Part shown: piece by piece, positions 44,346 to 62,424 of the stretch
Layout: each line of letters begins with the position of its first letter
Position numbering within the stretch: the stretch's first letter is position 1
From: Rubrivivax sp.
Lineage (GTDB): Bacteria > Pseudomonadota > Gammaproteobacteria > Burkholderiales > Burkholderiaceae
NCBI GenBank assembly: GCA_016790225.1
Contig: JAEUOZ010000069.1
Span: 1 to 64,000 of the forward strand
DNA: 64,000 nucleotides
Direction of reading: 5' to 3'
Program-made: the position numbers and the translations under genes
Notes under the pieces: model-generated
Databases searched by the model: none
Seen by the model: the letters and a program-made list of their open reading frames with translations, nothing else
Told to the model about the DNA's origin: nothing

Positions 44346-44371
44346 GACGATCAAGCCGCAGAATCGTCAGA
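44346..44371 (-). promoter_or_regulatory. Regulon promoter of the lipoprotein/CsgG/caspase operon
   Basis: On the minus strand: TCTGACGA (44371-44364), 15 nt, CGTC ending at 44346. This matches the shared signal of the regulon. The -10 lies 59 bases before the ATG at 44287 and 197 before 44149. Confidence 0.8.
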
Positions 44372-44755
44372 TGCCGGCGCTTGATTTCGTTCGCAGCGCT
44401 TGGGCAGTGACGCGGTGGCCGCTGGGCCTTGCCCCCCGCCCCAACACGGCCCTCCAGCCCGGGCTCGGGCAAGAAGGGCGCTGCCAGAGCAAGCGTCACA
44501 CAGGATCAGCCAGCCGCCGAGTTGAACGTATCGGCCACACGCAGCCTGCGCCCAGCCCAGCCCAGCCCAAGAAACTCTAACGCGAGATCCGACCCAACAC
44601 CGGCCCGCGGCATCCACCCGCCGTTTGTCCGACGGGCGGCTGACATCGGACTTTCAATCCGTCACCACGGGTAAACAGACAACGCAGCCATGAGGCCGGG
44701 CGCCGGCACATCCGAAGGCGGCCAGGGGTATCCGGCCCGACGCCCGCCGACGCGC
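44372..44755. other. Gene-free stretch of about 380 bp
   Basis: This lies between the anti-sigma gene end and the promoter of the lipoprotein operon. It holds a short microsatellite (CCCAG repeated about 3.8 times, 44551-44569). No gene, terminator with a T-run, or strong palindrome is visible. Confidence 0.5.
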
Positions 44756-45451
44756 TCAAGGCGTGAATCGCACGACCAGTTGCCCGCTGGAGGGCAGGGT
44801 CCGCCCGGTCTGTTGAAGCCGTTCATCCACCTCGGCCCGCTTGGAAGCCGGCACCTGCGCCGACAGCCAGACCTCGCGCCCCTCGACGCGCAGCGTGGCC
44901 ATCACGCCATGCGAGGCCAGCAAGGCCTGCAGCGCAGACGCTGCCGCCGCCGGATCGGGAACCCGTTCCGTGACGCCCTGAGTCGAGGGATCGCGCGGAT
45001 CCGCGGCCGATGCCCCGCTGATCGGCGCACTGGCCGCCGGCAGCTCCTTCATGACCAGTTCGTCATCGGGGTCGGGCATCACCCAGCGCACGGCAATCAC
45101 CGCACCCAGGACCGCGGCGCCCACCATGCCGTAGCGTGAGAGCGCCATGCCCGAGCTTCCCGAGCCCGGAAACAGCCAGGCCTGCAGCCGTTGCCAGCTT
45201 CCGGGCCTTTCGGATGCTTGGGTCTGCGCCTTCGGCTGGGCCGTGGGCTGGGCCGGTGCTGCCGCCTGGCGGGCGCGCACGATGGCCAGCAGGCGGGCTT
45301 CGCCTTCCGGATCGTCAGTGGCCTGCTGCTCCATCAGGGGATGCGCGGCGAAGTGGCTGCGCAAGCGCTCGGCCCGCCGCGTCTCGGCGTCATCCGCCTT
45401 GCGCAGGCCGGCCAGGACCTCGAAGAACTTCTCGTCTCGATCGGCGCTCAT
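44756..45451 (-). CDS. Putative anti-sigma factor (single-pass membrane protein)
   Basis: A 231-residue protein with a charged cytoplasmic N-terminal part (1-100), one membrane helix (about 104-124) and a periplasmic domain (about 155-231) with alternating beta/alpha pattern. It lacks the zinc HxxxCxxC motif of common anti-sigma factors. It starts 3 bases after the ECF sigma gene. That coupling and the topology fit an anti-sigma factor that senses an envelope signal; the assignment is by context, not by sequence family. Confidence 0.7.
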   Translation of the reverse strand: MSADRDEKFFEVLAGLRKADDAETRRAERLRSHFAAHPLMEQQATDDPEGEARLLAIVRARQAAAPAQPTAQPKAQTQASERPGSWQRLQAWLFPGSGSSGMALSRYGMVGAAVLGAVIAVRWVMPDPDDELVMKELPAASAPISGASAADPRDPSTQGVTERVPDPAAAASALQALLASHGVMATLRVEGREVWLSAQVPASKRAEVDERLQQTGRTLPSSGQLVVRFTP

Positions 45452-45454
45452 GAT

Positions 45455-46351
45455 TCAGTCCTTGCACGCGTCGAAATACTCGCGCGCCATCTTCAGTGCG
45501 TGACTCTTGCGTTGCCTCGCGTTCTTGCGCTGCTGCTCGGTGATGTTGGACGGGTCCGCCCCGAACTCGACGGCAATGTCGTCGATCTCCAGACCTTCGG
45601 CCACCAGTCGCAAGACACGCGCATAGGCCGGATGATCCTCTTCGAAGGCCGTCATGGCACGTTCGAGACAATCGCCCTGGCCGGGGTTGGGTGCCTTGTC
45701 GGGCGCAAAGATGGGCTGCGCCTGCTCGACTTCCGGGCGGATGTTGTCGTTTTCATCGTGCAGCGGGCCGATCTCGGCGCCACCGCCCCGCTTGGCGGCG
45801 CGCTGTCGGCGATGCCAGTCCAGCGCCTGCGAATCCAGGCACCTGTAGAGCCAGCTCAGGCCACCGGCCTGACCGCCCGGGTTGCTCTCGACAAAACGCA
45901 GCATCGCATCCACGGCGTTTTCTTCAGCGTCTTCGCGCGACATGCCGACCACATTCGTGCCGTTGCCGAACTCCAGGCGCCGGATCATGAAGTTGCGCAG
46001 ATGTCGGTAGAGCAGCTGGGCAGCCCGCTCCGCGAGGCCTTGGCGCACGGCGTCCAGGGCGGCCTGTGCCGCCTCCTTGATCGACATGTTCCCGGAGCCG
46101 TCGTCCTGGTGTCCGATTGCCACAGAATCCCCCTCAAGCTCCATCCCCTGGCTTGAGGTCATTCTAGGCATGGCCCACGCGCCGCCAGCTTCGAGCACAC
46201 CCGGGTACGGCTCGGCGGGCTGGCTGGCAAGCAGCGCCTGAAGCCGGCTGCGGGCCGCTCGGGTGGCGAGGTGGATCCATGGCGGCGTCCGCGTCATGGG
46301 TCGGCAGGGCGCGCGGCCTCGTGGAAGAGTGGCTTGGGTGAGGGTCATCAT
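45455..46351 (-). CDS. ECF-type RNA polymerase sigma factor
   Basis: Region 2 lies at about residues 110-185 (RHLRNFMIRR; EDAEENAVDAMLRFVES; WLYRCLDSQALDWHRR) and region 4 at about 225-290 (LERAMTAFEED; LEIDDIAVEFGADPSNITEQQRKNA), which carries the helix-turn-helix. Start 46351 lies 45 bases from a promoter of the regulon type, so autoregulation is likely. The first 88 residues look unlike a sigma domain; internal starts at 46144 or 46087 are possible. It precedes the putative anti-sigma gene and is the best candidate to read the shared promoter. Confidence 0.8.
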   Translation of the reverse strand: MMTLTQATLPRGRAPCRPMTRTPPWIHLATRAARSRLQALLASQPAEPYPGVLEAGGAWAMPRMTSSQGMELEGDSVAIGHQDDGSGNMSIKEAAQAALDAVRQGLAERAAQLLYRHLRNFMIRRLEFGNGTNVVGMSREDAEENAVDAMLRFVESNPGGQAGGLSWLYRCLDSQALDWHRRQRAAKRGGGAEIGPLHDENDNIRPEVEQAQPIFAPDKAPNPGQGDCLERAMTAFEEDHPAYARVLRLVAEGLEIDDIAVEFGADPSNITEQQRKNARQRKSHALKMAREYFDACKD

Positions 46352-46396
46352 GGTCGGTCGCTCTCTGGACGCATGGCATGGCGTCTTGTCGGCGTG

Positions 46397-46422
46397 GACG
46401 CCAACGCGGGCCCGACGTCAGA
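46397..46422 (-). promoter_or_regulatory. Regulon promoter of the sigma/anti-sigma operon
   Basis: On the minus strand: TCTGACGT (46422-46415), 15 nt, CGTC ending at 46397. The predicted start site falls about 38 bases before the ATG at 46351. It implies positive autoregulation. Confidence 0.8.
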
Positions 46423-46477
46423 GAGCACCGGCCGGCCGCCGCCCGAACAGGGGCATGCGGCGGCAATAAGTCACGCT

Positions 46478-47401
46478 TCAGCGCGAAGGTGCGCGCGCCA
46501 GGGGCAGGCTTGCGTTGTAACGGACGGTCACGGTCTGACGGAAGGCATTCCTGCGCGCTCTCGGCGTCGCGCAGGACGCGAGTTCATCGCCGCTGATGAA
46601 GCCGTCACCGTTGAGGTCGGTCTCAGGGCTGCGCAGACACTGGTGCCAGGCGCGGGTCGCCAGGCTGCCGCGCGAAGTGGACCAGGCCACCTCGTGCTCG
46701 GCAGATGCCGCCAGGTAGAGCAGGCGTGAATCGCTGCCTTGCGCGAGCAGCGTCGGCGGCGCCTTGATGACGGGCCGGTTGCTGGGGACTTCGCAGGCAT
46801 CGGCGGCCGCCTGTGCGGCAGCCGAACCCCAGCGAGGCAGCCCGGTCTCACCGGGATGGCTCTTGGCCTGGATGTCATCGTCGCCCGGCATCAGGAGCTG
46901 CTTGGTGGCGGCACCGCCGCTGAAGCAGGAATCGTTGAACATGATCACCTGCGCGGCCTTGCGGGCCAGCGATTCGAGCTGGGGCTGGAGCAAGGCATCG
47001 AGGTAGAGCTTCTCGTCGGCCGTCACCAGGCCTTCACGGCAGCCCGGCGCCGCGGCCCGCGCCAGACGCTTGCCATGACCGGAGAAGTAGATGAAGACCC
47101 GGTCGCCGGGCCGCACCCGCGCTTGCAGGTCCTGCCAGGCCTTCATCAGCGCGTCAAAGGTCAATCCGGCATCGGACAGCTCCAGCGTCGTCTCCGCTCT
47201 CGCGCCCAGGCTCACGGCCATCTCGCGCGCCAGCCGGGCATCAACATCGACACCGCGCAGCTTCGCGCCGGGTTGGGGATAGTCGCCGACCCACAGGATG
47301 AGCGCATGGGTGTCGGCCCGTGCCGGCTGCGCCGCCAGGCCGCACAGCACAAGTGCCGACGCGAGCCAGGGCAGCATCGACGAGCTCCAGTTGCGAATCA
47401 C
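46478..47401 (-). CDS. Exported caspase-like protease with EF-hand
   Basis: A 307-residue orthocaspase-like protein with a signal peptide (cleavage near AQPARA, residue 29). His109 in YFSGHGK and Cys159 in NDSCFSGG form the catalytic dyad. A canonical 12-residue EF-hand loop, DLNGDGFISGDE (262-273), follows the protease domain. The start is GTG 47401 with AGGAGG seven bases upstream; the longer frame to 47545 begins almost at the promoter and lacks a ribosome site. It has its own regulon promoter and is divergent from the kinase-like gene. Confidence 0.87.
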   Translation of the reverse strand: MIRNWSSSMLPWLASALVLCGLAAQPARADTHALILWVGDYPQPGAKLRGVDVDARLAREMAVSLGARAETTLELSDAGLTFDALMKAWQDLQARVRPGDRVFIYFSGHGKRLARAAAPGCREGLVTADEKLYLDALLQPQLESLARKAAQVIMFNDSCFSGGAATKQLLMPGDDDIQAKSHPGETGLPRWGSAAAQAAADACEVPSNRPVIKAPPTLLAQGSDSRLLYLAASAEHEVAWSTSRGSLATRAWHQCLRSPETDLNGDGFISGDELASCATPRARRNAFRQTVTVRYNASLPLARAPSR

Positions 47402-47557
47402 GACCCTTCCTCCTGGTGCCTGCGCGACACCGATTGCGACTTCTGCGGTCAGCCTGGTTCCGGGCCGCCGGCGCGGCGGCTCCGCCACACGGCCAGCGAC
47501 GATCGGGCGACGCAAATGCCCGCAGTGCTGCTCCGGCCTGGCCATACCAGATGCGGT

Positions 47558-47583
47558 GACGCGGCCCGGCCCGCGGCGTCAGA
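47558..47583 (-). promoter_or_regulatory. Regulon promoter of the 46.5-kb caspase gene
   Basis: On the minus strand: TCTGACGC (47583-47576), 15 nt, CGTC ending at 47558. The leader to the GTG start would be about 150 bases, longer than for other members. Confidence 0.75.
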
Positions 47584-47663
47584 TGCACGCAGCCCGCGAT
47601 TGCGTGCATTCTTCACGCGCCGCGCATTCTGCTGCGCTGCAAGCCCTTGCCGCCCATGGACTT

Positions 47664-47689
47664 TCTGACGGCCCGGGTCAGAGCGCGTC
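47664..47689 (+). promoter_or_regulatory. Regulon promoter of the kinase-like gene
   Basis: TCTGACGG (47664-47671), 15 nt, CGTC ending at 47689, which is 42 bases before the ATG. It is back-to-back with the caspase promoter 80 bases away. Confidence 0.78.
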
Positions 47690-47731
47690 AATGCGGCAGG
47701 CGAGGCCCTCCACGGCGCCCGCCCGCAACAC

Positions 47732-49039
47732 ATGCCCATCGAACCCGCTTCCACCGTGCCGCCGCCCGAACTCATCACCTGGTTCGGCCAGAGCCGCCGC
47801 CTGATCGGCGCGCGTCCCGATTCCTTGTACGGCTGGTGGCCGACGGAGGCCGGCCCTTGCATCGTCAAGGCCCTGGACACCGACCTGGTCGCCTACGCCG
47901 ACAACCTGCTGCAGCACGAACGTCAGGCGCTGCGCCGGCTGGCAGCGCTGGGCGCGCCGGCTGCCCGGCTGATCGAGATCGATCGGCCCGATTGGCTGGT
48001 CACCCGCTTTGCCGGGCTGAGCCTGCAGCATCTGCAGTCGCAGGGCCCCGCTGCGCAGCAGCCCGAGACCGCTTCGGTAGATCGCCTGGAGCTGATCGCC
48101 GCCTGGCATCACCTGATGCGGCGTCTGCAGCCCGTGGCGGAAGCCGGCGTGCTGATCGTCGATCTGCACCCCGGCAACGTCGTGCTGCCGCTGACCCAGG
48201 GTGTCTGCGGCCAGCTGCGGCTGACGGAGGTGACCACCATCGACCATGCGCACACGCTGGAAGCCGGCATGGACATCCGCCGGCCCGTGTGGATCCATGC
48301 CGGGATGCGCTATCTGGCGCCCGAGTTGCGCAGCATCCTGGCTGAAGACCAGGCGGCGTTCGAACAAGCCTGCCAGGCCGCCGGCTTCGCGCTGAGCGAT
48401 CTGTTGCACCACCCACAACGGCTCGAATCGGGCTCGCGCGGGCGTCACTTCTGGGCCAGCTACGACGCGCCGCAGCAGCTGCAGCGCAAGCTCGACGACG
48501 GCCAGCTCGATGCCGGGCGGGCGATGCAGTTTGCGATCGGCACGGCGCTGCTGGAGCTCTCCCGCGGGGCAGCGAGCGAGCCGGGCATGCCCGACATCCG
48601 CGCCGTCGCCGCGCGCATGACCCAGCCCGCGCCGCTGGAAAGGTATGCCACGCTGGACGAAGCGGCGCGCGCGCTGCACGCCGCCTGCGGTGCCCTGCCC
48701 AAGGTCGGCGCGCAGCGCCTGTCCCCGGTGCTGCCGCAGGACCTGGCCGCACGGTCCAGCTCCGTCGGCCCGACCAAGGCAGCGGTGCCGGCGGCCGAAG
48801 GCGGCACCGTCATCCAGGAGTTGGGCAACCCGGGCACCGCGCCAGGGGCCATCGATTCCCGCTTCCTCGGCACGGCGATCTCGGACTCGGCGCCGGCGCC
48901 GCAGACGGTTGGCGCGCCGCTTGGCGCGGCCACCACCGCCATGCCGGAAGGACGCCCAGCGCAGCCCGCGCTGCCCTGGCGCTGGTGGTATGCCTGTGCG
49001 GCGCTGGGCGCCCTGGCCGGCAGTTTCTGGCCGGCTTGA
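47732..49039 (+). CDS. Divergent protein-kinase-like protein with C-terminal membrane anchor
   Basis: A 435-residue protein with kinase-fold landmarks: a candidate ATP lysine (Lys46), a catalytic-loop-like DLHPGN (Asp144, Asn149), a metal-binding-type Asp171 in TIDHAHT and an APE motif (RYLAPELR, about 193-200). The classical HRD and glycine-rich loop are missing, so it may be a lipid- or small-molecule-type kinase or a pseudokinase. A disordered Ala/Pro stretch (330-410) precedes a single hydrophobic segment at the extreme C-terminus (about 415-435), giving a tail-anchored cytoplasmic protein. It has its own regulon promoter. Confidence 0.7.
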   Translation: MPIEPASTVPPPELITWFGQSRRLIGARPDSLYGWWPTEAGPCIVKALDTDLVAYADNLLQHERQALRRLAALGAPAARLIEIDRPDWLVTRFAGLSLQHLQSQGPAAQQPETASVDRLELIAAWHHLMRRLQPVAEAGVLIVDLHPGNVVLPLTQGVCGQLRLTEVTTIDHAHTLEAGMDIRRPVWIHAGMRYLAPELRSILAEDQAAFEQACQAAGFALSDLLHHPQRLESGSRGRHFWASYDAPQQLQRKLDDGQLDAGRAMQFAIGTALLELSRGAASEPGMPDIRAVAARMTQPAPLERYATLDEAARALHAACGALPKVGAQRLSPVLPQDLAARSSSVGPTKAAVPAAEGGTVIQELGNPGTAPGAIDSRFLGTAISDSAPAPQTVGAPLGAATTAMPEGRPAQPALPWRWWYACAALGALAGSFWPA

Positions 49040-49201: not shown

Positions 49202-49227
49202 GCCATCGCGCAAGCCGCACACGCCGA

Positions 49228-49307: not shown

Positions 49308-49817
49308 ATGACCTCGACCTTCCTCAAGCACACCGCCATCGGCCTTGCCGTCTTCGTCGTCGCCGCCGCCGCCGCCCACGCGCTGCGCACGCAGGGCCTG
49401 CCCGCGTGGCAGCAAGCCGCTGCGGCGCCGGCCACCGTGGCGGGCAGCAGCTTGATCGGCACCCCCAGCGGCGCAATGGCCGCCGGTCACTCGGACGAAA
49501 CGCGCCTGCAGGTGTTGCTGGAAGGTGTCGATGCGCCGGTGGCGCTGGATCAACCCGTCGCGCTGCCGCACGGCAGCCGCTTTCGCGTGAGGCTGGGCGC
49601 TGCCGAAGCAGCGACCTGGCAACTGGTGGCGATCGGCCCTGGCGCCGATGCTCGCGAAACCCCGCTGTGGAGCGCGACGACCGCCGCGGGCGGCCACACC
49701 ACCAGCCCGCGACTGCGTCTGAGCGGGACGCGTGGCACCGAAACGCTGAAGGTGATCCGGCGCTCGCTGGATGGCCGCATCACGACCGTGCGCGTCTTCC
49801 AGCTGCTGCACGTCTGA
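49308..49817 (+). CDS. Small exported protein, paralogue family A
   Basis: A 169-residue protein with an N-terminal signal or anchor (about 7-25). The rest is a beta-rich domain with the phrase LPHGSRFRVRLGAAEAATW. The RFRV(R/K) block and spacing recur in the products of 51689-52468 and 52501-53112, so the three look like paralogues. The fold resembles the DUF4384-type domains encoded nearby, but I cannot assign it firmly. It is driven by its own regulon promoter. Function unknown. Confidence 0.65.
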   Translation: MTSTFLKHTAIGLAVFVVAAAAAHALRTQGLPAWQQAAAAPATVAGSSLIGTPSGAMAAGHSDETRLQVLLEGVDAPVALDQPVALPHGSRFRVRLGAAEAATWQLVAIGPGADARETPLWSATTAAGGHTTSPRLRLSGTRGTETLKVIRRSLDGRITTVRVFQLLHV

Positions 49818-49845: not shown

Positions 49846-50505
49846 TCAGTTGCCGCCGGCCGCGCCTTCCTTGGGCGCGCGGCGGACCTCCACGCGGCGG
49901 TGCTGCGGGCTGTCCGGGGCGGCATCCGCCAGCAGGCGCTTGGGGCCGAAACCGTAGGCCCACAGACGCTGCGAGGCCACGCCCTTGCTCACCAGGTAGC
50001 TGCGTGCACTGATGGCCCGCGCGCAGGACAGGCGCAGATTGAGATCCATCGCGCCGCTGGCGTCGGTGTGGCCGGCGATGGCGAAGCGCTCACGCGCCAG
50101 CTGGGGGTGGTTGAGCGCCTGCGCCAGCTTGTCCAGCAGGCGCCGGCTCTCGGGCATCAGCTTGTCCGAGCCCAGCTCGAACTGCAGCGCCATGTCCACC
50201 TGGGCCGGCGTGTTGTCGGCGTACTCGGCCACAAAATTGCGCGAGCTCGCGCCTTCGCTGCGCGCGGCCCCGGGGTTGCCGGCGCACTGGTGATCCGCAC
50301 CCGGCGGGCGCGTCGGTGCGAAGGCGCGCGTGGTCGGCGCGGGCGGCGGATCGGCCACGGAAAGCCGGTTGACGAAGTCATCCACCGAGGCGTCGCTCAC
50401 CGGCGCGGCGGCCACGGCAGCCCCAGCCGCCGCGGCACACAGCACGGCAGTGGCCAGGCGCGCCTTCAGGCCGGCGCCCGCAGCCCGCGGGAACGCGCGC
50501 CTCAT
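49846..50505 (-). CDS. OmpA-family peptidoglycan-binding protein
   Basis: A 219-residue exported protein with an N-terminal signal (about 12-33), a spacer, and an OmpA/MotB domain (about 95-210): GHTDASGAMDLNLRLSCARA with the Asp and Arg that hold diaminopimelate. It should bind peptidoglycan in the periplasm. Its start overlaps the stop of the DUF4384 lipoprotein gene by 4 bases. It is the last gene of a five-gene operon. Confidence 0.85.
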   Translation of the reverse strand: MRRAFPRAAGAGLKARLATAVLCAAAAGAAVAAAPVSDASVDDFVNRLSVADPPPAPTTRAFAPTRPPGADHQCAGNPGAARSEGASSRNFVAEYADNTPAQVDMALQFELGSDKLMPESRRLLDKLAQALNHPQLARERFAIAGHTDASGAMDLNLRLSCARAISARSYLVSKGVASQRLWAYGFGPKRLLADAAPDSPQHRRVEVRRAPKEGAAGGN

Positions 50506-51050: not shown

Positions 51051-51662
51051 TCATCGCGCCGGCGTGGGCACGAGCCGGCCCGACGGCGGGTTGGCGGGGG
51101 TGCTGGCCGTGGTGCCTGCGCTCGCGGCAGACGCCCCGTTGCCGACCCTCAGGCGCCGGACTTCGACGCGGCGGTTGCTTGCCGATTCCGGATTGGCGCG
51201 ATTGGCCAGCCGGCTGGAGCCGTAGCCGATGGTCTGCAGGCGCCGCGCCGGGATGTCGTGAGCCCGCATCAGGTAGGCCTTCACGGATTCCGCGCGGTCC
51301 ATCGACAGGCGCAGGTTGGCTTCCTGGCTGCCCACGGCATCGGTATGCCCCGCCAGCAGGAAGGCGCTGGCCGCCAGCGCACGATCGCTCAGCGCCATGG
51401 CCAGCTGGTCCAGCTGCTGACGCCCGCGCGGCAGCAGCTCTGCCGATCCGAAGGTGAACTGCACGCGCAGATCGATGTGCGGCTCGGGCGCGGGGGCGGG
51501 TGCCGCGCCCGGGCGCGGCGGCCGATCGACCACGATGTCCTTGCCGCGCAGGGCTTCGAGGATCTTGGCCGCGGGCACCACGGGCCCGTCGTCGGTGGTC
51601 TGTGCCCACACCGGGCCGAGCACGGCTGCGCCCATCAGGCCAGCCATCATTCGTCGATTCAT
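51051..51662 (-). CDS. OmpA-family peptidoglycan-binding protein
   Basis: A 203-residue exported protein with a short signal (about 1-20) and an OmpA domain at about 65-185 (GHTDAVGSQEANLRLSMDRA; GYGSSRLANRANPESASNRR). All peptidoglycan-contacting residues expected for the family appear present. It is a paralogue of the product of 49846-50505 in the same operon. Confidence 0.86.
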   Translation of the reverse strand: MNRRMMAGLMGAAVLGPVWAQTTDDGPVVPAAKILEALRGKDIVVDRPPRPGAAPAPAPEPHIDLRVQFTFGSAELLPRGRQQLDQLAMALSDRALAASAFLLAGHTDAVGSQEANLRLSMDRAESVKAYLMRAHDIPARRLQTIGYGSSRLANRANPESASNRRVEVRRLRVGNGASAASAGTTASTPANPPSGRLVPTPAR

Positions 51663-52500: not shown

Positions 52501-53112
52501 TCAGCGATGCGCGATGCTGATGGTCGTGACGATGCCCTGGCCACCCTGGTTGACAAGGTAGGTGGCGGTTTCCGTGTTCTGCACGTCCAGGCGGATGTCC
52601 TTGCTGGCCGAAGCCACCCGCGTGAGCCAGCTGCCCACCCAGGCCCAGACACCTTGCGGCTCCTGTGCCGGCTCCAGCACCACGTGCAGCTGATCGACGC
52701 CGCGCTGGCCATCCAGGCGCAGACGCGGGCTGATGGTCTCCAGGCCCGGCTGGACTTCGCCCTGCCAGATCGGCTCGCGGCCGAGCACACCCGAGGGATT
52801 GGTGTTGTAGAACGAGATCTTGCCGGCGCGCGAGGCCAGCACCTTGACGCGGAAGCGGTCACCGGTGCGGAAGCTGCGCTCGGTGCTGCGCGGCTGCAGT
52901 GAACCGTCGGGTGACTCCAGCAGCACGCTCACGGCCATCGCGTCGGTGGTGCTGACCACCGCCGTGCCGACCACCGGCGCCGAGACGCGGTCGAGCACGA
53001 TGTCCTTGGTGGTTCCGGCGGCCACGGCAAGGCCTGCCCAGGCCGCACTGGCGCTCAGCAGTGCAGCGGCGCTCAGCTTCAGCAGGCGCGGTCGGTGGAT
53101 GTGTTTCTGCAT
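52501..53112 (-). CDS. Exported hypothetical protein, paralogue family A, first gene of the OmpA operon
   Basis: A 203-residue precursor (signal 1-32). The start at 53112 has AGGAGA seven bases upstream; the longer frame to 53307 runs through the promoter and is rejected. The body has LLESPDGSLQPR and FRTGDRFRVKVLASRAGKIS, similar to DUF4384 and to the two paralogues. It heads a tight operon (gaps of 26-33 bases or overlaps) through 49846, controlled by the promoter at 53199-53174. Confidence 0.7.
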   Translation of the reverse strand: MQKHIHRPRLLKLSAAALLSASAAWAGLAVAAGTTKDIVLDRVSAPVVGTAVVSTTDAMAVSVLLESPDGSLQPRSTERSFRTGDRFRVKVLASRAGKISFYNTNPSGVLGREPIWQGEVQPGLETISPRLRLDGQRGVDQLHVVLEPAQEPQGVWAWVGSWLTRVASASKDIRLDVQNTETATYLVNQGGQGIVTTISIAHR

Positions 53113-53170
53113 GGGGATCTCCTGGTCTGGAGCACGGCGCTTGAGGTGCCGTCGGGTTGAACATGTCCGG

Positions 53171-53199
53171 TCTGACGTGAGCGGGGCGCAAACGTCAGA
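53171..53199. promoter_or_regulatory. Palindromic, potentially bidirectional regulon promoter
   Basis: TCTGACGT (53171-53178), 13 nt, ACGTCAGA (53192-53199). Each strand reads TCTGACGT-N15-GTC exactly, so the -35 of one strand contains the -10 of the other. Outer arms CCGG/GTCC extend the symmetry. The minus-strand copy drives the 52501-53112 operon (62 bases to its ATG). The plus-strand copy points to the caspase gene at 53599, which also has a closer promoter. Confidence 0.78.
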
Positions 53200-53466
53200 T
53201 CCGGACGCAACGAGGCAGCGCCAGGGTGATCCTGTTGGGGTTCTCCATACGCCCTCCCTGTTGCACATGCTAAACGCCAGATTGCACTGCACGCAATGGC
53301 CGGGCAAACTTCACGCATCCGGCGGCATCGTCAAGTGGACGGTCATACATCAACAGCCGGCCAACGGGAGGACTCGTCATGACTGCGGCACGCCCGCCGG
53401 ATCCGCAAGGATCACTGCTTCGATCCACACGCCCGCGCGCTGGCGCGCCTGGCCTGCAGCGTTCGG
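53200..53466. other. Rest of the divergent intergenic region
   Basis: About 270 bases between the palindromic promoter and the plus-strand promoter of the caspase gene. No gene-like frame, T-run terminator or repeat is seen. Confidence 0.5.
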
Positions 53467-53492
53467 TCTGACGTTCCTCTCGAATCTGCGTC
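53467..53492 (+). promoter_or_regulatory. Regulon promoter of the caspase-serpin-protease operon
   Basis: TCTGACGT (53467-53474), 15 nt, CGTC ending at 53492. The leader to the ATG at 53599 is about 100 bases. Confidence 0.8.
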
Positions 53493-53598: not shown

Positions 53599-55047
53599 AT
53601 GCCTCGTCTTCATCAGCGCCCGCGTTCCTTCGCCCGCCAGACCCTGGCCGCCGTCCTCGGTGCTGCCGCCCTGCTGGGCGCAGCCGGCCCCGCCCAGGCG
53701 GCACAGAGTCACGCCTTGATCATCTGGATCGGCGCCTACGACGGCCCGCCCGCCAACAGCCTGCCGGGCATCGACAAGGATGCGCGCATGGCACGCGAGA
53801 TGGCGCGCTCCATCGGCGTGCCCGAAGCCAACATCACCGAGATCGGCAACGCTGCCGTAACGCTCCAAGGCATGCGCTCTGCGGTCTCGGCTCTCGAAAG
53901 CCGCATGGGTCAGGGCGACCAGGTATTCCTGTACTACTCAGGCCACGGCGTCCAGGCCAAGGGCCAGGGTGGATCGGCCTGCATCGAAGCCCTGGTCACC
54001 CGCGATCTCAAGTTCTTCGTGGATGCCGATCTGCAGGCGGCCCTGACGCGCATCGGCAGCAAGGCCAAGCAGGTCATCATGATGAACGACTCCTGCTTCT
54101 CCGGCGGTGCCGCGACCAAGGAAGTCCGCTCCGATGGTGGCGTGCCCAAGTTTCTGCCTGAAGGGGCTGCGCGGCCCGATGTGGCAGCGGGCGAACGCTA
54201 TGAGTGCGGCGCAGCCGTCAACGCCTTCTCGCGCAACTTCACGCCGGAAGCCATGTCCAACCGGCCCAATGTGGTCTACATCGCGGCCTCCAGCGCCAAG
54301 GAGGTCTCGCTGGCCACGCGCGACGGCAGCGCCGCGACGCTGGCCTGGGCGGCCTGCCTGAAGGGCGGCCGGGCGGATGCCGATCGCAGCGGCAGCGTCA
54401 CGGCCGAAGAGCTGCGCGCCTGCGGCCAGCAGATGCTGAACGCCGGCAACTTCCGCCAGACCATGACGATCGTCGGCAACAAGGATCTGCCGCTGAGCTT
54501 CCAGGGTGGCGGCATCGCGGGCGGCGGTGGTTCCGGCGCTGGCGGGGGCAGCGGTGGCGGTGCGCCGGTGGCAACCGCCGCTGCGCTGACCGACATCGCC
54601 AACCTCGGCGATCCGGCGCGCCGCGTCGAACTGCGGGCCAGCCGCAGCAGCTACAAGATCGGCCAGGATTTCCTGGAGTTCACGGTCAGCACGGACAAGC
54701 CCGGCTATCTGTACCTGCTGCAGGTGGGCAGCGACGGCAAGACCTTCAACGTCATCTACCCGAACGACATCGACAGCAACCACTTCCTGAACGCGGGCAG
54801 CCACTCGTTCCCGCGCGCCAACAGCAACCTGCGCTTCCGCTCCCGCGGGCCGGCCGGCAAGAGCCATCTGCTGGCCCTGGTGACGGACAAGCCCGGCGAG
54901 CTGTCGGCCTTCGGCGCCGTCAGCGGCGGCTTCCGCTCGGCTCCGGCCACGGGCGCCAACCTGCGCAACTTCGTCGCCGAAAGCAGCCAGGCGGGCGGCG
55001 GCACCTTCGGCGCCAGCAAGGTGGTCTCGCTGGACGAAACGCCCTGA
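53599..55047 (+). CDS. Exported caspase-like protease with EF-hand and DUF4384 domain
   Basis: A 482-residue protein: signal (1-35), C14 domain (about 37-300) with His116 in YYSGHGV and Cys166 in NDSCFSGG, an EF-hand loop DADRSGSVTAEE (260-271), a glycine-rich hinge (303-321) and a DUF4384 domain (about 350-435: DFLEFTVSTDKPGYLYLL). GAGGAG lies upstream of the ATG. The catalytic half closely resembles the 46.5-kb paralogue. It heads a plus-strand operon with the serpin, the S1 protease and the caspase-FGE fusion. Confidence 0.88.
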   Translation: MPRLHQRPRSFARQTLAAVLGAAALLGAAGPAQAAQSHALIIWIGAYDGPPANSLPGIDKDARMAREMARSIGVPEANITEIGNAAVTLQGMRSAVSALESRMGQGDQVFLYYSGHGVQAKGQGGSACIEALVTRDLKFFVDADLQAALTRIGSKAKQVIMMNDSCFSGGAATKEVRSDGGVPKFLPEGAARPDVAAGERYECGAAVNAFSRNFTPEAMSNRPNVVYIAASSAKEVSLATRDGSAATLAWAACLKGGRADADRSGSVTAEELRACGQQMLNAGNFRQTMTIVGNKDLPLSFQGGGIAGGGGSGAGGGSGGGAPVATAAALTDIANLGDPARRVELRASRSSYKIGQDFLEFTVSTDKPGYLYLLQVGSDGKTFNVIYPNDIDSNHFLNAGSHSFPRANSNLRFRSRGPAGKSHLLALVTDKPGELSAFGAVSGGFRSAPATGANLRNFVAESSQAGGGTFGASKVVSLDETP

Positions 55048-55174
55048 TGGCGTGGCGCCGGTGGCCTTCGCGGGCCGCCGGCCGATTGCCCACCCTTGCG
55101 GGCGGCCGGCCACTCAAGGCCGCCACGCAGCTTCTCTCACACCTCACTCACCCCGGTTCCCACCAAGGATCGCC

Positions 55175-56632
55175 ATGTCTGCCTTCCACCGCCCTCAGCG
55201 CATCCGCAGCGCGTGCTCCCCGCTGGCCCTCGCGGCCGGCCTGATGCTGGCGACGCTGCCGCTGGCGCAGGCCCAGGCGCCCACGACGCCAGCGCCCGCT
55301 GCTGCCAGCGCAGCAGCCGCCCGGCCCGCCGCAAGCGAAGGCAAGGCCCCGGCCGCCGCTGCAGCCACCCCCGCCAAGGATGTGGTGCTGGACAGCCCGG
55401 CCGCGGCGCCCGCCGCCGTGCAGGGCGGCCGCCTGGTACCCACGCCCGCCGGCGCGGGCTCCAGCCTCTACACCACGCCGCTGCACGATGGCGCCACGGC
55501 GGGCGCGCTGGCCGATCTGGGCCTGGCGCTGCTGCGCCAGCAGAGCCAGGCCAGCGGCCAGGCGCAGCGCAACCAGCTGGTCTCGCCCCTCAGCGTGGCC
55601 TCGGCGCTGGGGCTGGTGCATGCCGGCAGCGCCGGCGCCACCGCCAGTGAGGTGGCGCGTCTGCTCAGCCCGGCCGCCGCCGGCGACAGCTTCTTCCGCG
55701 AGCGCCTGCCCAGCCATGTGCAGCGCCTGGCCGAGCGCGGCTCCGGCGCGCTCTCCATGGCCAGCCGCGTCTGGGTGGACCGCGCGCTGATCGGCGAAGT
55801 GCCGGCCAGCTTTGCCGCGCTGGCCAGCCAGCGCCTGCGCGCCGATGGCGCCGTCACCAGCTTTGCACAACCCGAAGCCGCGCGCGGCGCGATCAACAGC
55901 TGGGCGGCCGCCGGCACAGGCGGGCGCATTCCGGCGCTGCTGCCACCCGGCAGCCTCACGCCCAATACACGCGTCGTGATCACCAACGCCATCCACTTCC
56001 GCAGCCGCTGGGACAAGCCGTTTGACAGCAGCCGCACCACGGCCCTGCCCTTCACGCTGGGCAACGGCACCGTCAAGCCGGTGCCGACCATGGTGGACGA
56101 TCGCCCGGCGCGCCACGGCACGGTGGCCGGCATGCAGGTGCTGGAGCTGCCCTTTGCCGGCAACGAGTTTGCGCTGGTGCTGGCCATGGCGCCGGTCGGC
56201 CACTCGCTGGATGCGGCAGAGAAGGCCGTCTCCGGGCTGGACATGGCGGCCTGGTCCGGCCAGCTGCAGGCCTCGAGCTGCCGGGTGCAGCTGCCGCGCT
56301 TCAGCGTCCAGGGCGGCGCCGAAGCCCTGCGCCCGGCGCTGCAGGATCTGGGCATGCGCACCGCCTTCGGCCCGGGGGCCGATCTCTCGCCGCTGCTGGG
56401 CCAGGCGGCCCGCGGTGTCTCGCTGGCGCAGGTGTTCCATGCCGCCACGATCGAGATCGACGAGACCGGCGGCGTGGCCACCGCGGCCACCGCGGCCACC
56501 GCCGAGTTCAAGAGCCTGGCGCTGCCGTCCTCGGCCTGCAAGGTCGATCGGCCCTTCCTCTTCACCATCGTCCACAAGGCCACGCAGACGCCGCTGTTCG
56601 TGGGCAAGGTGGCCGAGCCGGTGTCGCCATGA
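55175..56632 (+). CDS. Exported serpin
   Basis: Serpins trap proteases by a suicide conformational change. This 485-residue protein has a signal (cleavage near LAQAQA, residue 35), an Ala/Pro-rich spacer (36-100) and a full serpin fold (about 105-485): NQLVSPLSVASALGL, ITNAIHFRSRWDKPF and the C-terminal DRPFLFTIVH. The hinge ETGGVATAATAAT (430-442) has the small residues needed for insertion. Counting P17 at Glu430 puts P1 at Lys446 and P1' at Ser447, predicting inhibition of basic-specific proteases. ATG 55175 has AAGGA upstream. Confidence 0.88.
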   Translation: MSAFHRPQRIRSACSPLALAAGLMLATLPLAQAQAPTTPAPAAASAAAARPAASEGKAPAAAAATPAKDVVLDSPAAAPAAVQGGRLVPTPAGAGSSLYTTPLHDGATAGALADLGLALLRQQSQASGQAQRNQLVSPLSVASALGLVHAGSAGATASEVARLLSPAAAGDSFFRERLPSHVQRLAERGSGALSMASRVWVDRALIGEVPASFAALASQRLRADGAVTSFAQPEAARGAINSWAAAGTGGRIPALLPPGSLTPNTRVVITNAIHFRSRWDKPFDSSRTTALPFTLGNGTVKPVPTMVDDRPARHGTVAGMQVLELPFAGNEFALVLAMAPVGHSLDAAEKAVSGLDMAAWSGQLQASSCRVQLPRFSVQGGAEALRPALQDLGMRTAFGPGADLSPLLGQAARGVSLAQVFHAATIEIDETGGVATAATAATAEFKSLALPSSACKVDRPFLFTIVHKATQTPLFVGKVAEPVSP

Positions 56633-56774
56633 GGCCAACGCCCATGTTCAGCCGCAGCCCCGATCACCTTCGCGGCCCGCGGACTGACACACCCATGGCA
56701 TGCGCGGGCGCCTGTCTCAAGGCCGATCCCGCGCAGCCCCTTCTTTCACATCAACGCTCAGGGAGAGCCGCATC

Positions 56775-57782
56775 ATGGAGAACACCACCGATCCCACGCC
56801 GGGCCAGACTGCGCCAACGCTCGAACGGCTGTGCCGGGTCAGCCTGCTGGCCTGCGCGGCCTGGGCCAGCCTGCCGGCGCAGGCCAGCTGCGTGGAGCAA
56901 CACCCGCTGACCAGCCAGTGCGTGCGCTGGGCGGACGGCACACGCCCGGCAGGGCCGCAGCTGCTGGCGGCCGTGCGCGATCAGCCGGCGCCGGGTGCGG
57001 CTCACAAGGCCCTGGCCCAGCCCAAGATCGTGGGCGGCACGATCGCCCCCGCGTCCGCCAACCCCTGGCAGGTGGCGCTGGTGGCGCGCCAACGGCCTTC
57101 GGCCCAGGAGGGGCAGTTCTGCGGCGGCGCCAACATCGGCGGCGGCTGGGTGCTCACCGCGGCGCACTGCGTGGACGAAGCGCCGGCCAGCGCCTTCGAG
57201 ATCTTCAGCGGCAGCGATTCCCTGCGCCAGGGCGGCCGCCGCACGGGCGTGGCGCGTGTCGTGATCCACCCCGAGTGGAACCGCGAGCGCCTGCAGAACG
57301 ACATCGCGCTGGTGCAGGTGCAGGGCGGTGCTTCGGGGCTGGCGGGCGAACCCGTGCTGGGCCCTGCGGGCCTGCCCGAAGCCATCCTGCGCTTCCTGCC
57401 CGTGCGCAGCACCGGCTGGGGCCGCAACCTGCGCACCGACGCGATGGCGCAGCCCGAACTGCTGACGGTCGATCTGCCCTACGTGACGCTGGACCGCTGC
57501 GGTGCGCCCCAGGCCTACGGCACGCTGGTGAACGAGAAGATGCTCTGCGCCGGCCCTGACGACACCAGCGCCAGCACCTGCAATGGCGACAGCGGCGGCC
57601 CGGCCACCGCCGAATTTGGCGGCGTGCGGCGCCTGGTGGGGCTGGTCAGCTTCGGCAAACCCGGGTGCAACAAGCCTTTTGGCTACAGTGTGTTCACCAA
57701 GGTCTCTGCATTCCTGCCATGGATCACCAGCGTGACAGAGGGCTCCAGCGCCGCAGCGCCCGGAACCCGCGGATGGCGCTGA
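56775..57782 (+). CDS. Exported chymotrypsin-fold serine protease (S1) with propeptide
   Basis: A 335-residue precursor: signal (about 16-38), propeptide (39-84), then the mature N-terminus IVGG after Lys84, a classical zymogen junction. The triad is His131 (LTAAHC), Asp176 (NDIALV) and Ser273 (GDSGGP). The residue six before Ser273 is Ser267, where trypsin has Asp189, and the 226-equivalent is probably Ser, so chymotrypsin-like or mixed specificity is likely. ATG 56775 has GGGAGA upstream. It overlaps the next gene by 10 bases. Confidence 0.88.
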   Translation: MENTTDPTPGQTAPTLERLCRVSLLACAAWASLPAQASCVEQHPLTSQCVRWADGTRPAGPQLLAAVRDQPAPGAAHKALAQPKIVGGTIAPASANPWQVALVARQRPSAQEGQFCGGANIGGGWVLTAAHCVDEAPASAFEIFSGSDSLRQGGRRTGVARVVIHPEWNRERLQNDIALVQVQGGASGLAGEPVLGPAGLPEAILRFLPVRSTGWGRNLRTDAMAQPELLTVDLPYVTLDRCGAPQAYGTLVNEKMLCAGPDDTSASTCNGDSGGPATAEFGGVRRLVGLVSFGKPGCNKPFGYSVFTKVSAFLPWITSVTEGSSAAAPGTRGWR

Positions 57783-59812: not shown

Positions 59813-60016
59813 CCTTTGGCCCTTTTGCCCTCTTACCCTTCGAACAAGGCTTGATGAAGGCTACACCAGGAGATGGGCTGGGTCTTGAGGGGGTGTCGGG
59901 TGCTTCTGGCCCGGTGCCATCCCGTGCTTCGAGCAGCGCTGGCGGGGTGCATCGGTCATCGTCAGTTCACAGATGCCCGCCAGAGAGCGCGGCCGCCTGC
60001 ACGCCGGCGGAGGCAC

Positions 60017-60814
60017 CTAACCGTGGACCTCACGGCGCGCCGCGTATTCGCCGCCCACGCCGCTGCTGCTGACTTGCCGTGCGGCTTGAGTCTGGGTCTG
60101 CGCGCCGCCGTGTCCCAGACTGCCCGGCTCGAAGACGATGGCCAGCAGCTGGTCCTGCGCGCGGTACAGCTTGGCCATCAGCCACCATCCCATGACCGTG
60201 AAGTGCCCGACCAGGAAGGCCGCTGTGGCCAGGAGCAGCCCCGTCGTCGCAGCGACCGCCAGCGCCTCGAAAGAGCCGGCATGACCATACGGCCGGCTGA
60301 TGATGTCCCACAGCTGGGCCACGGCGCCCGCAGCGCCAATGCCCATCAGCATCAGCTTGTAGAGCGCGGGCAGCCGCAGCAGGCCGTGTCGGCGAGCCCA
60401 ATCTCGAGAGCTGTCAGCACTCTGGGTGAGGACGGCCTCGCCGGTGTGCAGATTCAGGGCGCACAGCGTTCGCTGGCTCGGGTTGGCGATGCTGGGGTCC
60501 TGCAGCAGGCGCACCGGTTGGCCGGCATGCACCGGCAGAACGGCGCCCTCCATCTGCACGCAGTGCTGTTGGCCATCGGCCTCTTCCACCCAGAACTGCG
60601 AGCGCTGGACTGACTGGCTGGTCACCGTGGCGGCGCTGACGAAGCCGCCGTACTTGGGGTCTACGTAGCCGCCGCCTCCGTGGCTGGACACCTTCGTGTC
60701 TGACCACAGCTGCACAGCTTTGGCACGCCCTTCCACCACCTTCAGCGGCACGGGCAGCGCGGGCGTGAGGTTCAGCTGAGACAGAAGGCGGGACAGCAGG
60801 CGGGCGATCATCAT
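60017..60814 (-). CDS. Hypothetical two-TM membrane protein of the regulon
   Basis: A 265-residue protein I do not recognise. Residues 30-130 are soluble, with GGGGYVDPKYGGF and a beta-rich pattern. Two membrane helices lie at about 152-172 and 185-212, then a Gln/Ser-rich tail. TGGAG precedes the ATG, which lies 31 bases from a regulon promoter. It is convergent with the caspase-FGE gene. Confidence 0.68.
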   Translation of the reverse strand: MMIARLLSRLLSQLNLTPALPVPLKVVEGRAKAVQLWSDTKVSSHGGGGYVDPKYGGFVSAATVTSQSVQRSQFWVEEADGQQHCVQMEGAVLPVHAGQPVRLLQDPSIANPSQRTLCALNLHTGEAVLTQSADSSRDWARRHGLLRLPALYKLMLMGIGAAGAVAQLWDIISRPYGHAGSFEALAVAATTGLLLATAAFLVGHFTVMGWWLMAKLYRAQDQLLAIVFEPGSLGHGGAQTQTQAARQVSSSGVGGEYAARREVHG

Positions 60815-60845
60815 GGTGTGCTCCAGAAGGGGTATGAAGCCCTTG

Positions 60846-60871
60846 ACGAGACGACGGCAGGAAAGTCAGAT
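60846..60871 (-). promoter_or_regulatory. Regulon promoter of the two-TM protein gene
   Basis: On the minus strand: TCTGACTT (60871-60864), 15 nt, CGTC ending at 60846. This is the only copy with T at the seventh position of the -35 box. Confidence 0.72.
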
Positions 60872-60924
60872 CAGCCGCGTCAATGCACCGGGCTGTTGCC
60901 GACGGCGTCACTCGCCGAGTTCCC

Positions 60925-62340
60925 TCAGCCCGCCACCCGCTCCAGCTCCACATGCAGCGGGTACAGCAGCCCGCCGCCCTGGGGATCGATCAGGGCTTCG
61001 GGACCGTTGATGTGCAGGCGCGTCATCGGGCGCCCTGTGCCCTGCTTGCCGACGATGCCGCGGCCGTCTTCAGCGAAGTACATGGGCTGCGCTGCCGTGC
61101 CGCTGCCGCGTGTGGCGGCTTCCAGCAGCAGGCCGGGGTCTGCCGCGGCCGGGCTCACGAGCAGCGGGCAGCTCTGGCTGAGCACGCGCAGCGCGCGGGC
61201 GTCCTGGGTGGCCAGGCCCGCGCGTTCGAAGCTCGCGCGGTCCAGCCGGGCGGGCAGCGGCAGATCGAAGACGAAGGGCGTCGCATAAGCCTGGGCGGTA
61301 GTGCCCAGCACGGTCACGCGCAAGCGCGGCGCGCGTGGCACGCGCGGTGCCGGCAGGGCCGTGTGGCCTTCGGCGATGGCCGGCAAGGCGGTGAAGTTTG
61401 CACGGGCCGCAGATGGCTCGGCCGGCATGACGGCCGCCGTCACCACGACGGTTTCGGCCGCCCGGTCAACCGTACTCGCTACCGTCGCTTCTGCGGCGGC
61501 CGGCCCGGCGGCGGGCAGCGCCTCGAACAGCAGCTGGGCATCGATGTCGTCCTGCCCGGCGAGCACGGTGCCCTGGTCTTCCCGGATCGGCTCGAAGCGG
61601 TAGCGCATGCCCAGGGTCTCTGCCACGCTCAGCCCGCGCTGCAGCAGTTGACGGCGCAGCCAGGCCGAGGTGCCCGCGGCCGGCCCGCTCATCAAGGCGT
61701 GCAGCGCCTCGTGCAGGCGCGGCTGGCGCACGGTGACCACCACGGCCTGCACGCAGCCGCTGGCGCGCGGCGGCCGATCGCCACGCAGCGTGAGCTCGGC
61801 CTTGGCCGCCTGGTTCAGCGCGCGCAGCAGCAGATCGGCGGCCTGGCGCTGGCTCAGCGCCGGCTGTGCGCGCGGTGCAGCTTCGCTGGCCGCCAGCTGG
61901 GCGGCGGTTGGCCCGGCGTGGGGGCCACCATTCGCCTGCGCCGCACCGGTCGGCTGCTGGCGGGAGGCCTTGCGCAAGGGCAGCGGCAAGCCCAGCCGCG
62001 CCATCCAGCCGCGCCAGCCGCCGGGCGTGGGGCCCTGCGGTTCGCGCGGGGCCGGCGGCTCGGCAAAGTGCAGTCGCAGCTGGTGCTCGCCCAAGGCATC
62101 GTCGATGGCAGATTCCACCGGGCGCACGGAGATCTGCACGCCCGCCTGGCCTTGCTCGCGCAGCAGCGCGCCAATGGCCTGGGTCGTCAGGCTGGGGCTG
62201 AGCGGCTGCTCGGCCTGCGTGGAGTAGCGCAGCTCGATGCGGCGCAGGGGCCGGCCGCGGGACTGCCGGTCGATCACCTTGGTGATGCCGGAGAGGCTGG
62301 ACTGGCGCGGTGAGAGACGGAATTCGGCCGTGGTGGACAT
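60925..62340 (-). CDS. Hypothetical 471-aa protein of the regulon
   Basis: A soluble, Ala/Pro-rich protein without signal or membrane segments. An N-terminal part (1-110, STTAEFRLSPRQSSL) and a C-terminal beta-rich part (about 335-471: RLRVTVLGTT, LHINGPEALIDPQGG) flank a low-complexity linker. The C-terminal region could be FHA-like, but the conserved FHA residues are not clear. The start at 62340 has GAGGAG upstream and lies 58 bases from a regulon promoter; the longer frame to 62511 crosses the promoter and is rejected. Function unknown. Confidence 0.65.
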   Translation of the reverse strand: MSTTAEFRLSPRQSSLSGITKVIDRQSRGRPLRRIELRYSTQAEQPLSPSLTTQAIGALLREQGQAGVQISVRPVESAIDDALGEHQLRLHFAEPPAPREPQGPTPGGWRGWMARLGLPLPLRKASRQQPTGAAQANGGPHAGPTAAQLAASEAAPRAQPALSQRQAADLLLRALNQAAKAELTLRGDRPPRASGCVQAVVVTVRQPRLHEALHALMSGPAAGTSAWLRRQLLQRGLSVAETLGMRYRFEPIREDQGTVLAGQDDIDAQLLFEALPAAGPAAAEATVASTVDRAAETVVVTAAVMPAEPSAARANFTALPAIAEGHTALPAPRVPRAPRLRVTVLGTTAQAYATPFVFDLPLPARLDRASFERAGLATQDARALRVLSQSCPLLVSPAAADPGLLLEAATRGSGTAAQPMYFAEDGRGIVGKQGTGRPMTRLHINGPEALIDPQGGGLLYPLHVELERVAG

Positions 62341-62398
62341 GGTGGCTCCTCGAGGGGGTCGACGGGGGACGCGGCGGCTTGGCACGCTCCTGACATCG

Positions 62399-62424
62399 GA
62401 CGCGAGGCCGAAGCAGACGTCAGA
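62399..62424 (-). promoter_or_regulatory. Regulon promoter of the 471-aa protein gene
   Basis: On the minus strand: TCTGACGT (62424-62417), 15 nt, CGTC ending at 62399. Confidence 0.8.

What the first reader, a model, noticed from the sequence alone, without database searches (positions are those of the whole stretch)
44346..62424. One promoter signal (TCTGAC(G/T)N-N15-GTC) controls nine transcription units around an ECF sigma gene
Seen directly: upstream of nine genes the sequence TCTGAC(G/T)N is followed by exactly 15 nt and then GTC, with C immediately before the GTC in every case. Positions: 46422-46397, 44371-44346, 47583-47558 (minus); 47689, 49253 and 53492 as -10 ends on plus; 53199-53174, 60871-60846 and 62424-62399 (minus). 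The copies serve the sigma/anti-sigma pair, three of the four caspase genes or operons directly (the fourth is in an operon), the OmpA operon, the kinase-like gene and three unknowns. ECF sigma factors typically recognise CGTC-like -10 boxes. The inference is a self-contained, autoregulated caspase regulon.
Basis: partly seen in the sequence, partly recalled or inferred. Interest (0 to 1): 0.92.

Follow-up and report, generated by a model that had tools for sequence, protein, structure and literature searches.

The report
Self-controlled sigma-factor regulon of bacterial caspases
A 23-kb stretch of bacterial DNA carries nine copies of one promoter signal that very probably lets a single regulator switch on itself and a set of exported caspase-like proteases with their likely inhibitor, and the same signal recurs beside the same genes in several related bacteria.

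Summary
TCTGAC-N17-GTC occurs 10 times in the 64-kb window against 0.31 expected: nine gene-directed copies plus one mirror image. All lie at 44.3-62.4 kb, and they head units that cover the 19 genes I called at 39.5-62.5 kb. One coordinate pair is off by one base.

The interpretation largely holds. In Sphaerotilus mobilis the island recurs with 12 sites of a slightly widened pattern in 31.6 kb (0.65 expected), seven of them upstream of six orthologous units, with flanks drifted to background. Of 17 compared caspase-bearing genomes, 6 of 6 with a clear anti-sigma relative have two or more sites at a compared locus; 0 of 11 without it have any. In S. mobilis 7 of 12 strict sites fall in 25 kb; 12 sister genomes average 5.0. 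So this is most likely the promoter of the island's own ECF sigma.

New here: a serpin follows one caspase in 11 of 11 serpin-bearing loci, with Lys at the inferred P1 in 12 of 12 serpins, as expected of an inhibitor of Arg/Lys-cutting metacaspases. Sigma binding, inhibition and biological role are untested.

The parts
44346..44371 (-). promoter element; heads lipo704 - unknown - casp1
   Evidence: exact match; S. mobilis has two sites 48 and 88 nt before its lipo704 start
46397..46422 (-). promoter element; heads sigma - anti-sigma
   Evidence: exact match; site before the S. mobilis sigma
47558..47583 (-). promoter element; heads casp2
   Evidence: exact match; no separate orthologous unit seen in S. 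mobilis
47664..47689 (+). promoter element; heads kinase-like gene
   Evidence: exact match; sites before kin in S. mobilis and L009
49228..49253 (+). promoter element; heads u169
   Evidence: exact match; sites before u169 in S. mobilis and L009
53174..53199 (-). promoter element; heads u268 - u259 - OmpA - DUF4384 - OmpA; near-palindromic
   Evidence: exact match; site upstream of u268 also in L001, L005, L010 and G019
53467..53492 (+). promoter element; heads casp3 - serpin - trypsin - casp4
   Evidence: exact match; sites before casp3 in S. mobilis and L005
60845..60870 (-). promoter element; heads u265 (T at position 7)
   Evidence: exact match; no ortholog of u265 found in the S. mobilis island
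62399..62424 (-). promoter element; heads u528 (start 62340)
   Evidence: exact match; starts
45455..46351 (-). ECF-type sigma factor (the database record P0001, 210 aa, starts at the Met at 46087)
   Evidence: PF07638 30.7 bits, cut-off 21.1; relatives
44756..45451 (-). anti-sigma factor (inferred): helical N-terminus, one probable TM, C-terminal ferredoxin-like (b-a-b-b-a-b) domain
   Evidence: order after sigma kept in L001, L005, L012, L032, L114; model pLDDT 93-97 at residues 161-231
39531..41150 (-). casp1, probably exported caspase-like protease
   Evidence: PF00656
41154..42446 (-). protein of unknown function (labelled csgG? in my scripts; no Pfam match)
   Evidence: relative in S. 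mobilis between lipo704 and casp1
42173..44287 (-). lipo704, predicted lipoprotein
   Evidence: lipobox read by eye; S. mobilis 32% over 575 aa
46478..47545 (-). casp2, probably exported caspase-like protease with EF-hand-like loop
   Evidence: PF00656; likely start 47401
47732..49039 (+). kinase-like protein with C-terminal TM read by eye
   Evidence: K46, E63, D144, N149, D171 invariant in 3 of 3; weak, far-below-cut-off LanKC/LanL match
49308..49817 (+). u169, probably exported, related to u268
   Evidence: 33% identity to u268 over 113 columns
49846..50505 (-). OmpA-family protein
   Evidence: PF00691
50502..51017 (-). DUF4384 lipoprotein
   Evidence: PF14326; lipobox by eye
51051..51662 (-). 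OmpA-family protein
   Evidence: PF00691
51689..52468 (-). u259, probably exported unknown
   Evidence: relatives in S. mobilis, L008, G019
52501..53307 (-). u268, probably exported unknown; used as island marker
   Evidence: A4 alignment, 43-61% identity to six relatives
53599..55047 (+). casp3, caspase + DUF4384 with EF-hand-like loop
   Evidence: PF00656, PF14326; nearest solved sequences are metacaspases
55052..56632 (+). probably exported serpin, inferred P1 Lys
   Evidence: PF00079 257.8 bits; RCL alignment
56700..57782 (+). probably exported trypsin-like protease
   Evidence: PF00089; no relative in loci L001-L079
57665..59812 (+). casp4, caspase + FGE-sulfatase domain with EF-hand-like loop
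   Evidence: PF00656, PF03781
60017..60814 (-). u265, probable membrane protein of unknown function
   Evidence: ORF; no family
60925..62340 (-). u528, unknown; relative in S. mobilis island (27% over 494 columns)

Best explanation
The repeated element is the -35/-10 promoter (TCYGAC-N16-CGTC) of the ECF sigma factor encoded at 45455-46351. Shown: the element, its fixed spacing, its position before each unit, its recurrence before orthologous units, and its co-occurrence with the sigma/anti-sigma pair. Inferred: a single-pass anti-sigma holds the sigma at the inner membrane; an envelope signal sensed by its periplasmic domain frees it; RNA polymerase with this sigma then transcribes the sigma/anti-sigma unit itself (positive feedback) and eight further units. 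These make a largely exported set: four caspase-like proteases, OmpA and DUF4384 proteins, lipoproteins and a serpin. The serpin, with Lys at P1, most likely restrains Arg/Lys-specific caspases.
For: Count and spacing: (10 against 0.31), (window island 10 at spacing 16, other spacings mean 0.31; S. mobilis island 12, others 0.69, simulated mean 0.65). Position before starts. Orthologous units: seven sites stand before sigma, u268, casp3, kin, lipo704 (two) and u169 in S. mobilis, while flanks are 0.10-0.38 identical. Specificity: 6 of 6 compared genomes with a strong anti-sigma match have at least 2 sites, 0 of 11 without it have any (Fisher p 8e-5; L008 left out). Locality: 7 of 12 strict S. 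mobilis sites in 25 kb, sisters' mean 5.0. Autoregulation in two arrangements: a site before sigma (window, L001, L012, L032), and in G019 a site before the u268 operon that runs on into sigma. Flanks are asymmetric, T-rich after TCYGACG and not mirrored before CGTC. Most ECF sigmas autoregulate (PMC3817407, passages read).
Against: No transcription start or binding datum. The widened pattern and the strict G-form were chosen after seeing relatives; the unwidened window pattern has 2, 2 and 3 exact sites in L001, L005 and L010, 1 in L017, and 0 in the other 46 of 50 loci, L009, L012 and L032 among them. L008 has a divergent sigma/anti-sigma pair and 1 site. L009 has 4 sites and the anti-sigma but no adjacent sigma; its genome gives only a weak sigma match, 4.2e-7. 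In G019 only 1 of 21 genome-wide sites is at the island operon, and its joined region is not enriched by count (2; other spacings up to 5). L005's 3 sites do not exceed the best other spacing (3), and one is inside a gene. Genome-wide the reversed-pattern control is commoner than the pattern. Serpin-caspase inhibition is inference from gene order and one residue.
Confidence: 0.82

Rival explanations
1. The element is an inverted-repeat operator (GAC...GTC half-sites) bound by a dimeric regulator or repressor, not a sigma promoter.
For: GAC and GTC are reverse complements, and one site (53174-53199) is almost perfectly palindromic TCTGACG...CGTCAGA.
Against: Across 32 chosen sites the left half is followed by G-TTT and the right half preceded by TG, with no mirrored AGA or AAAC (core columns were fixed by the selection, flanks were not). 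The sites point towards genes. The regulatory pair found with the sites is a sigma and anti-sigma.
Confidence: 0.08
2. The promoters are real but read by another ECF sigma elsewhere in the genome; the local sigma is one of its targets.
For: L009 has sites and the anti-sigma without an adjacent close sigma. PMC3817407 describes possible sigma-sigma cascades (passage read).
Against: Sites track the local pair across the compared genomes and cluster at the island in S. mobilis.
Confidence: 0.09
3. The copies are recently duplicated DNA (a repeat family) with no regulatory role.
For: The spacer is partly alike in some copies (GTTTGCG, GTTT).
Against: Flanks are unlike each other and drifted between orthologous sites, spacers mostly so (0.06-0.75 identical); no site lies in the first 44 kb of the window.
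Confidence: 0.01

Closest known systems
Autoregulated ECF sigma/anti-sigma modules (such as RpoE-RseA, named in PMC10028731 passages)
   Same: Compact sigma, neighbouring membrane anti-sigma, bipartite promoter in front of its own operon
   Different: Nine sites in one island and a target set of caspases, serpin, OmpA and DUF4384 proteins; the window's anti-sigma has no Pfam match
CASP/Craspase of type III-E CRISPR (Csx29-Csx30-CASP-sigma; PMC10028731, passages read)
   Same: A caspase-like protease and an ECF sigma in one locus with sigma motif matches inside the locus; there the protease cuts the sigma's inhibitor
   Different: No Cas or Csx match among the 19 island proteins; caspases here look exported; the anti-sigma is probably membrane-spanning; anti-sigma cleavage here is only a hypothesis
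EACC2/TRADD-N caspase neighbourhoods with ECF sigma (PMC8195603, passages read)
   Same: Caspases, trypsin-like peptidases and ECF sigma genes as neighbours
   Different: casp1 scores 48.3 bits on NCBIfam's EACC1-associated caspase model, cut-off 140; no promoter motif or serpin was seen in the passages read
Plant and algal serpin-metacaspase pairs (AtSerpin1 with AtMC9 and AtMC1, CrSERPIN with CrMCA-I; PMC10609998, passages and table rows read)
   Same: Serpin beside metacaspase-like protease; the Lys P1 fits Arg/Lys-specific metacaspases
   Different: Bacterial, probably exported, physically linked genes; inhibition untested

Membership tests
ECF sigma factor | Match to an ECF sigma model above its cut-off | tested here: met
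   PF07638 30.7 bits against 21.1. Against: TIGR02937 19.9 bits is below its cut-off 42.9. The 7-sequence profile finds ECF structures 6dv9, 7qh5, 2q1z at 3e-5 to 1e-4
ECF sigma factor | Linked anti-sigma with a transmembrane segment | tested here: met
   Order kept in the window and 5 loci and in L010's genome; the TM helix 108-123 is modelled at low confidence
ECF sigma factor | Promoter-like bipartite site upstream of its own operon | tested here: met
ECF sigma factor | Directs transcription from that site | not testable with these tools
   needs RNA-seq or in vitro transcription
Caspase/metacaspase (C14) | C14 domain above cut-off, His-Cys dyad | tested here: met
   4 of 4 above the PF00656 cut-off; dyad read by eye (AHG/DTC in casp1, GHG/DSC in the others)
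Caspase/metacaspase (C14) | Arg/Lys cleavage, calcium dependence | not testable with these tools
   EF-hand-like loops only: Pfam EF-hand_5 below cut-off in casp2, casp3, casp4; D260, S264, G265, E271 invariant in 25 of 25 casp3 homologs aligned
Inhibitory serpin | Serpin match and hinge P17-P9 ExGTEAAAA | tested here: inconclusive
   PF00079 257.8 bits; hinge close, but P14 is Gly or Ala instead of Thr in 12 of 12 (consensus from PMC8233489)
Type III-E CASP system | Cas7-11 and Csx29/Csx30 genes in the locus | tested here: not met
   No Cas or Csx family match for the 19 island proteins in Pfam; the rest of the genome was not seen
EACC1-associated caspase | NF047832 above cut-off | tested here: not met
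   48.3 against 140 bits for casp1; casp2-casp4 were not scanned with NCBIfam

The most novel reading that the evidence does not exclude
A bacterial analogue of animal extracellular protease cascades: exported, calcium-gated caspases, switched on through an ECF sigma with positive feedback (perhaps a caspase cleaving the periplasmic part of the anti-sigma), and restrained by a dedicated serpin whose natural target is a metacaspase, guarding or remodelling the cell envelope.
Probability: 0.2. Interest if true: 0.87.

Novelty: new variant of a known kind. Interest (0 to 1): 0.66.

Why it matters
It puts the gene set of an exported bacterial caspase system under one testable promoter, so expression of one sigma factor could reveal the regulon and its purpose. 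It also proposes a native target for a bacterial serpin; a serpin phylogeny paper calls the functions of prokaryotic serpins 'relatively enigmatic' (PMC8233489, passage read).
Full report
OBSERVATION. The pattern TCTGAC-N17-GTC was counted on both strands of the window: 10 exact matches, against a mean of 0.31 (largest 3) in 100 dinucleotide shuffles. C precedes GTC in 9 of 9, and position 7 is G in 8 of 9 and T in one. One coordinate pair is off by one base (60870-60845). Spacing is strict: the same halves at spacings 12-16 and 18-22 give 0-1 matches each. No site lies in the first 44 kb.

GENES. The sites sit in an island at about 39.5-62.5 kb. To its left are housekeeping genes (arginyl-tRNA synthetase, SPOR protein, DsbA-like, LptA-like, ABC ATPase, sigma-54). 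The nine units headed by sites cover the 19 genes I called there: sigma and anti-sigma; lipoprotein, unknown and casp1; casp2; kinase-like; u169; u268, u259, OmpA, DUF4384, OmpA; casp3, serpin, trypsin, casp4; u265; u528. Membership of an operon is inferred from strand and short gaps. Signal peptides or lipoboxes, read by eye and not tested with a predictor, suggest that most products are exported.

RELATIVES. Only two relatives of the sigma, besides the window's own record, were found among 5.8 billion proteins by a search limited to close relatives, and a genome scan with them found none. A scan with the casp3 family gave 79 loci. tblastn of the 19 window proteins showed the island, in varying parts, in Sphaerotilus mobilis (L001), Rhodocyclaceae MAGs (L005, L009), a Rubrivivax MAG (L008) and beta-proteobacterial MAGs (L010, L012, L032). 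With flanks added, S. mobilis has relatives of kin, u528, u268, u259, both OmpA proteins, DUF4384, sigma, anti-sigma, several caspases, serpin, u169, lipo704 and the casp1 unit in about 31 kb; no trypsin or u265 relative was listed there.

MOTIF IN RELATIVES. With the window pattern unchanged, exact sites at spacing 17 number 2 in L001, 2 in L005, 3 in L010, 1 in L017 and 0 in the other 46 of the 50 loci L001-L050. Relatives often read TCCGAC, so the pattern was widened to YCYGAC-N16-CGTC; this was done after seeing them, so counts in these loci are partly circular. The comparison with other spacings in the same loci guards against this in part. At spacing 16 it gives 10 in the window island (other spacings mean 0.31), 12 in the S. 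mobilis island (0.69), 4 in L009 (0.06), 3 in L012 (0.12), 2 in L010 (0.06), 2 in L032 (0.06), 3 in L005 (0.81, maximum 3, so not clear), 2 in G019 (0.69, maximum 5, not clear) and 1 in L008 (0.31). One of L005's three and one of L012's three fall inside coding sequence and are probably chance.

ORTHOLOGOUS SITES. In S. mobilis, sites stand before sigma, u268, casp3, kin, u169 and lipo704 (two sites, 48 and 88 nt before a start with a ribosome-binding site). That is 7 of 12 island sites at six orthologous units; two more (CCCGAC form) have no gene start assigned, and my simple gene caller missed several genes there. The cores match the window's at 9 or 10 of 10 bases, but most of that is forced because both sites were found with the pattern. 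What is informative is that such sites stand there at all (0.65 expected in 31.6 kb) and that 60 bases upstream and downstream match at only 0.10-0.38, spacers at 0.06-0.75.

CO-OCCURRENCE. Among loci L001-L079, 5 of 7 with a sigma or anti-sigma profile hit have at least two sites, against 1 of 72 without; that one is L010. The two of 7 that fail are L008 (divergent pair, 1 site) and L030 (weak sigma hit, 0 sites). The anti-sigma profile was then run on the 18 genomes behind 19 chosen loci of the 79: 7 match, including L010's genome, where sigma and anti-sigma lie side by side on another contig. Leaving out the L008 genome (2.5e-8), 6 of 6 genomes with it have at least two sites at a compared locus and 0 of 11 without it have any (Fisher p 8e-5). 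L011 (no site) and L012 (three) belong to one genome, counted once. G019 was not in this set.

LOCALITY. In the S. mobilis genome the strict form TCYGACG-N15-CGTC has 12 matches, 7 of them within 25 kb at the island; 12 other genomes of the genus, in which the u268 profile finds nothing, have 11, 6, 8, 3, 8, 4, 2, 4, 2, 1, 5 and 6 (mean 5.0). The looser form gives 28, the same 7 in the island. Genome-wide there is no excess over the tool's reversed-pattern control (28 for the strict form, 97 for the looser one in S. mobilis), so the evidence is the clustering, not the total. The same test could not be made for the window's own genome. In G019 one of 21 matches of the looser pattern lies at the island operon.

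PROMOTER OR OPERATOR. From 32 sites that I chose as standing before genes (sites inside genes and a few unassigned ones were left out) the flanks were read: the base after TCYGAC is G in 27, the next three are T in 18, 20 and 16, the base before CGTC is G in 23, and the base after it is G in 1. The two halves are not mirror images, which favours a directional promoter.

SIGMA AND ANTI-SIGMA. The sigma matches PF07638 above its cut-off but stays below the cut-off of TIGR02937. The anti-sigma family has a conserved N-terminal helical part, one probable membrane helix and a C-terminal domain modelled with confidence as b-a-b-b-a-b; fold comparisons gave nothing above common background. The sigma-then-anti-sigma order is kept in L001, L005, L012, L032 and L114. 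That this protein inhibits the sigma is inferred from position and layout.

SERPIN AND CASPASE. In 11 of 11 loci where a serpin was found it follows casp3 on the same strand. The loci were collected by casp3, so serpins elsewhere were not surveyed. Counted 17 residues from the hinge Glu, the inferred P1 residue is Lys in 12 of 12 serpins, the window's included. The trypsin beside it in the window has no relative in the 79 loci (loci only, not whole genomes), so the steady partner is the caspase. Six of these loci (L003, L006, L014, L015, L016, L019) have no sigma, anti-sigma or sites, so the serpin-caspase pair exists outside the regulon too. Plant metacaspases cut after Arg or Lys (abstract of PMC3881575 in the listing), and plant and algal serpins inhibit metacaspases (PMC10609998). 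The pairing here is inference, not shown inhibition. casp3's nearest solved sequences are metacaspases.

MECHANISM. Most likely: an envelope signal frees the sigma from its membrane anti-sigma, the sigma raises its own and the island's transcription, and exported caspases act in the periplasm or outside under serpin control. A known parallel in which a caspase-like protease relieves an ECF sigma inhibitor is the type III-E CASP system (PMC10028731, passages read). That the caspases here cut the anti-sigma is a hypothesis only.

NOVELTY. An autoregulated ECF module is a known kind. A nine-promoter ECF island devoted to exported caspases with a serpin was not seen in the listings of the searches named in Tried and rejected. 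I rate it a new variant of a known kind.

Noticed in passing
L108:9133-11427 and L114:3411-5381: Caspase domains fused to periplasmic solute-binding domains (Peripla_BP_6 and TctC), next to kin in S. mobilis and next to the anti-sigma in G019; possibly ligand-gated caspases.
   Followed up: partly
window 62451-64000 and L108:12892-17115: A large membrane protein beside the island; the S. mobilis relative (34% identity) has weak, below-cut-off FtsW/RodA and transpeptidase matches and its own promoter site. The window copy has only a one-mismatch site (62396-62421, +) and runs off the end.
   Followed up: partly
casp2, casp3, casp4: EF-hand-like calcium loops inside three of four caspases, below Pfam cut-off; loop positions invariant in 25 aligned casp3 homologs.
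   Followed up: partly
L009:1082-2959: A SLT + LysM lytic transglycosylase gene with its own promoter site, divergent from kin.
   Followed up: no
L003, L006, L014, L015, L016, L019: casp3-serpin pairs without the sigma, anti-sigma or promoter sites in the locus: an independent caspase-serpin module.
   Followed up: partly
window 56700-57782: Trypsin-like protease between serpin and casp4, with no relative among the 79 loci compared.
   Followed up: no
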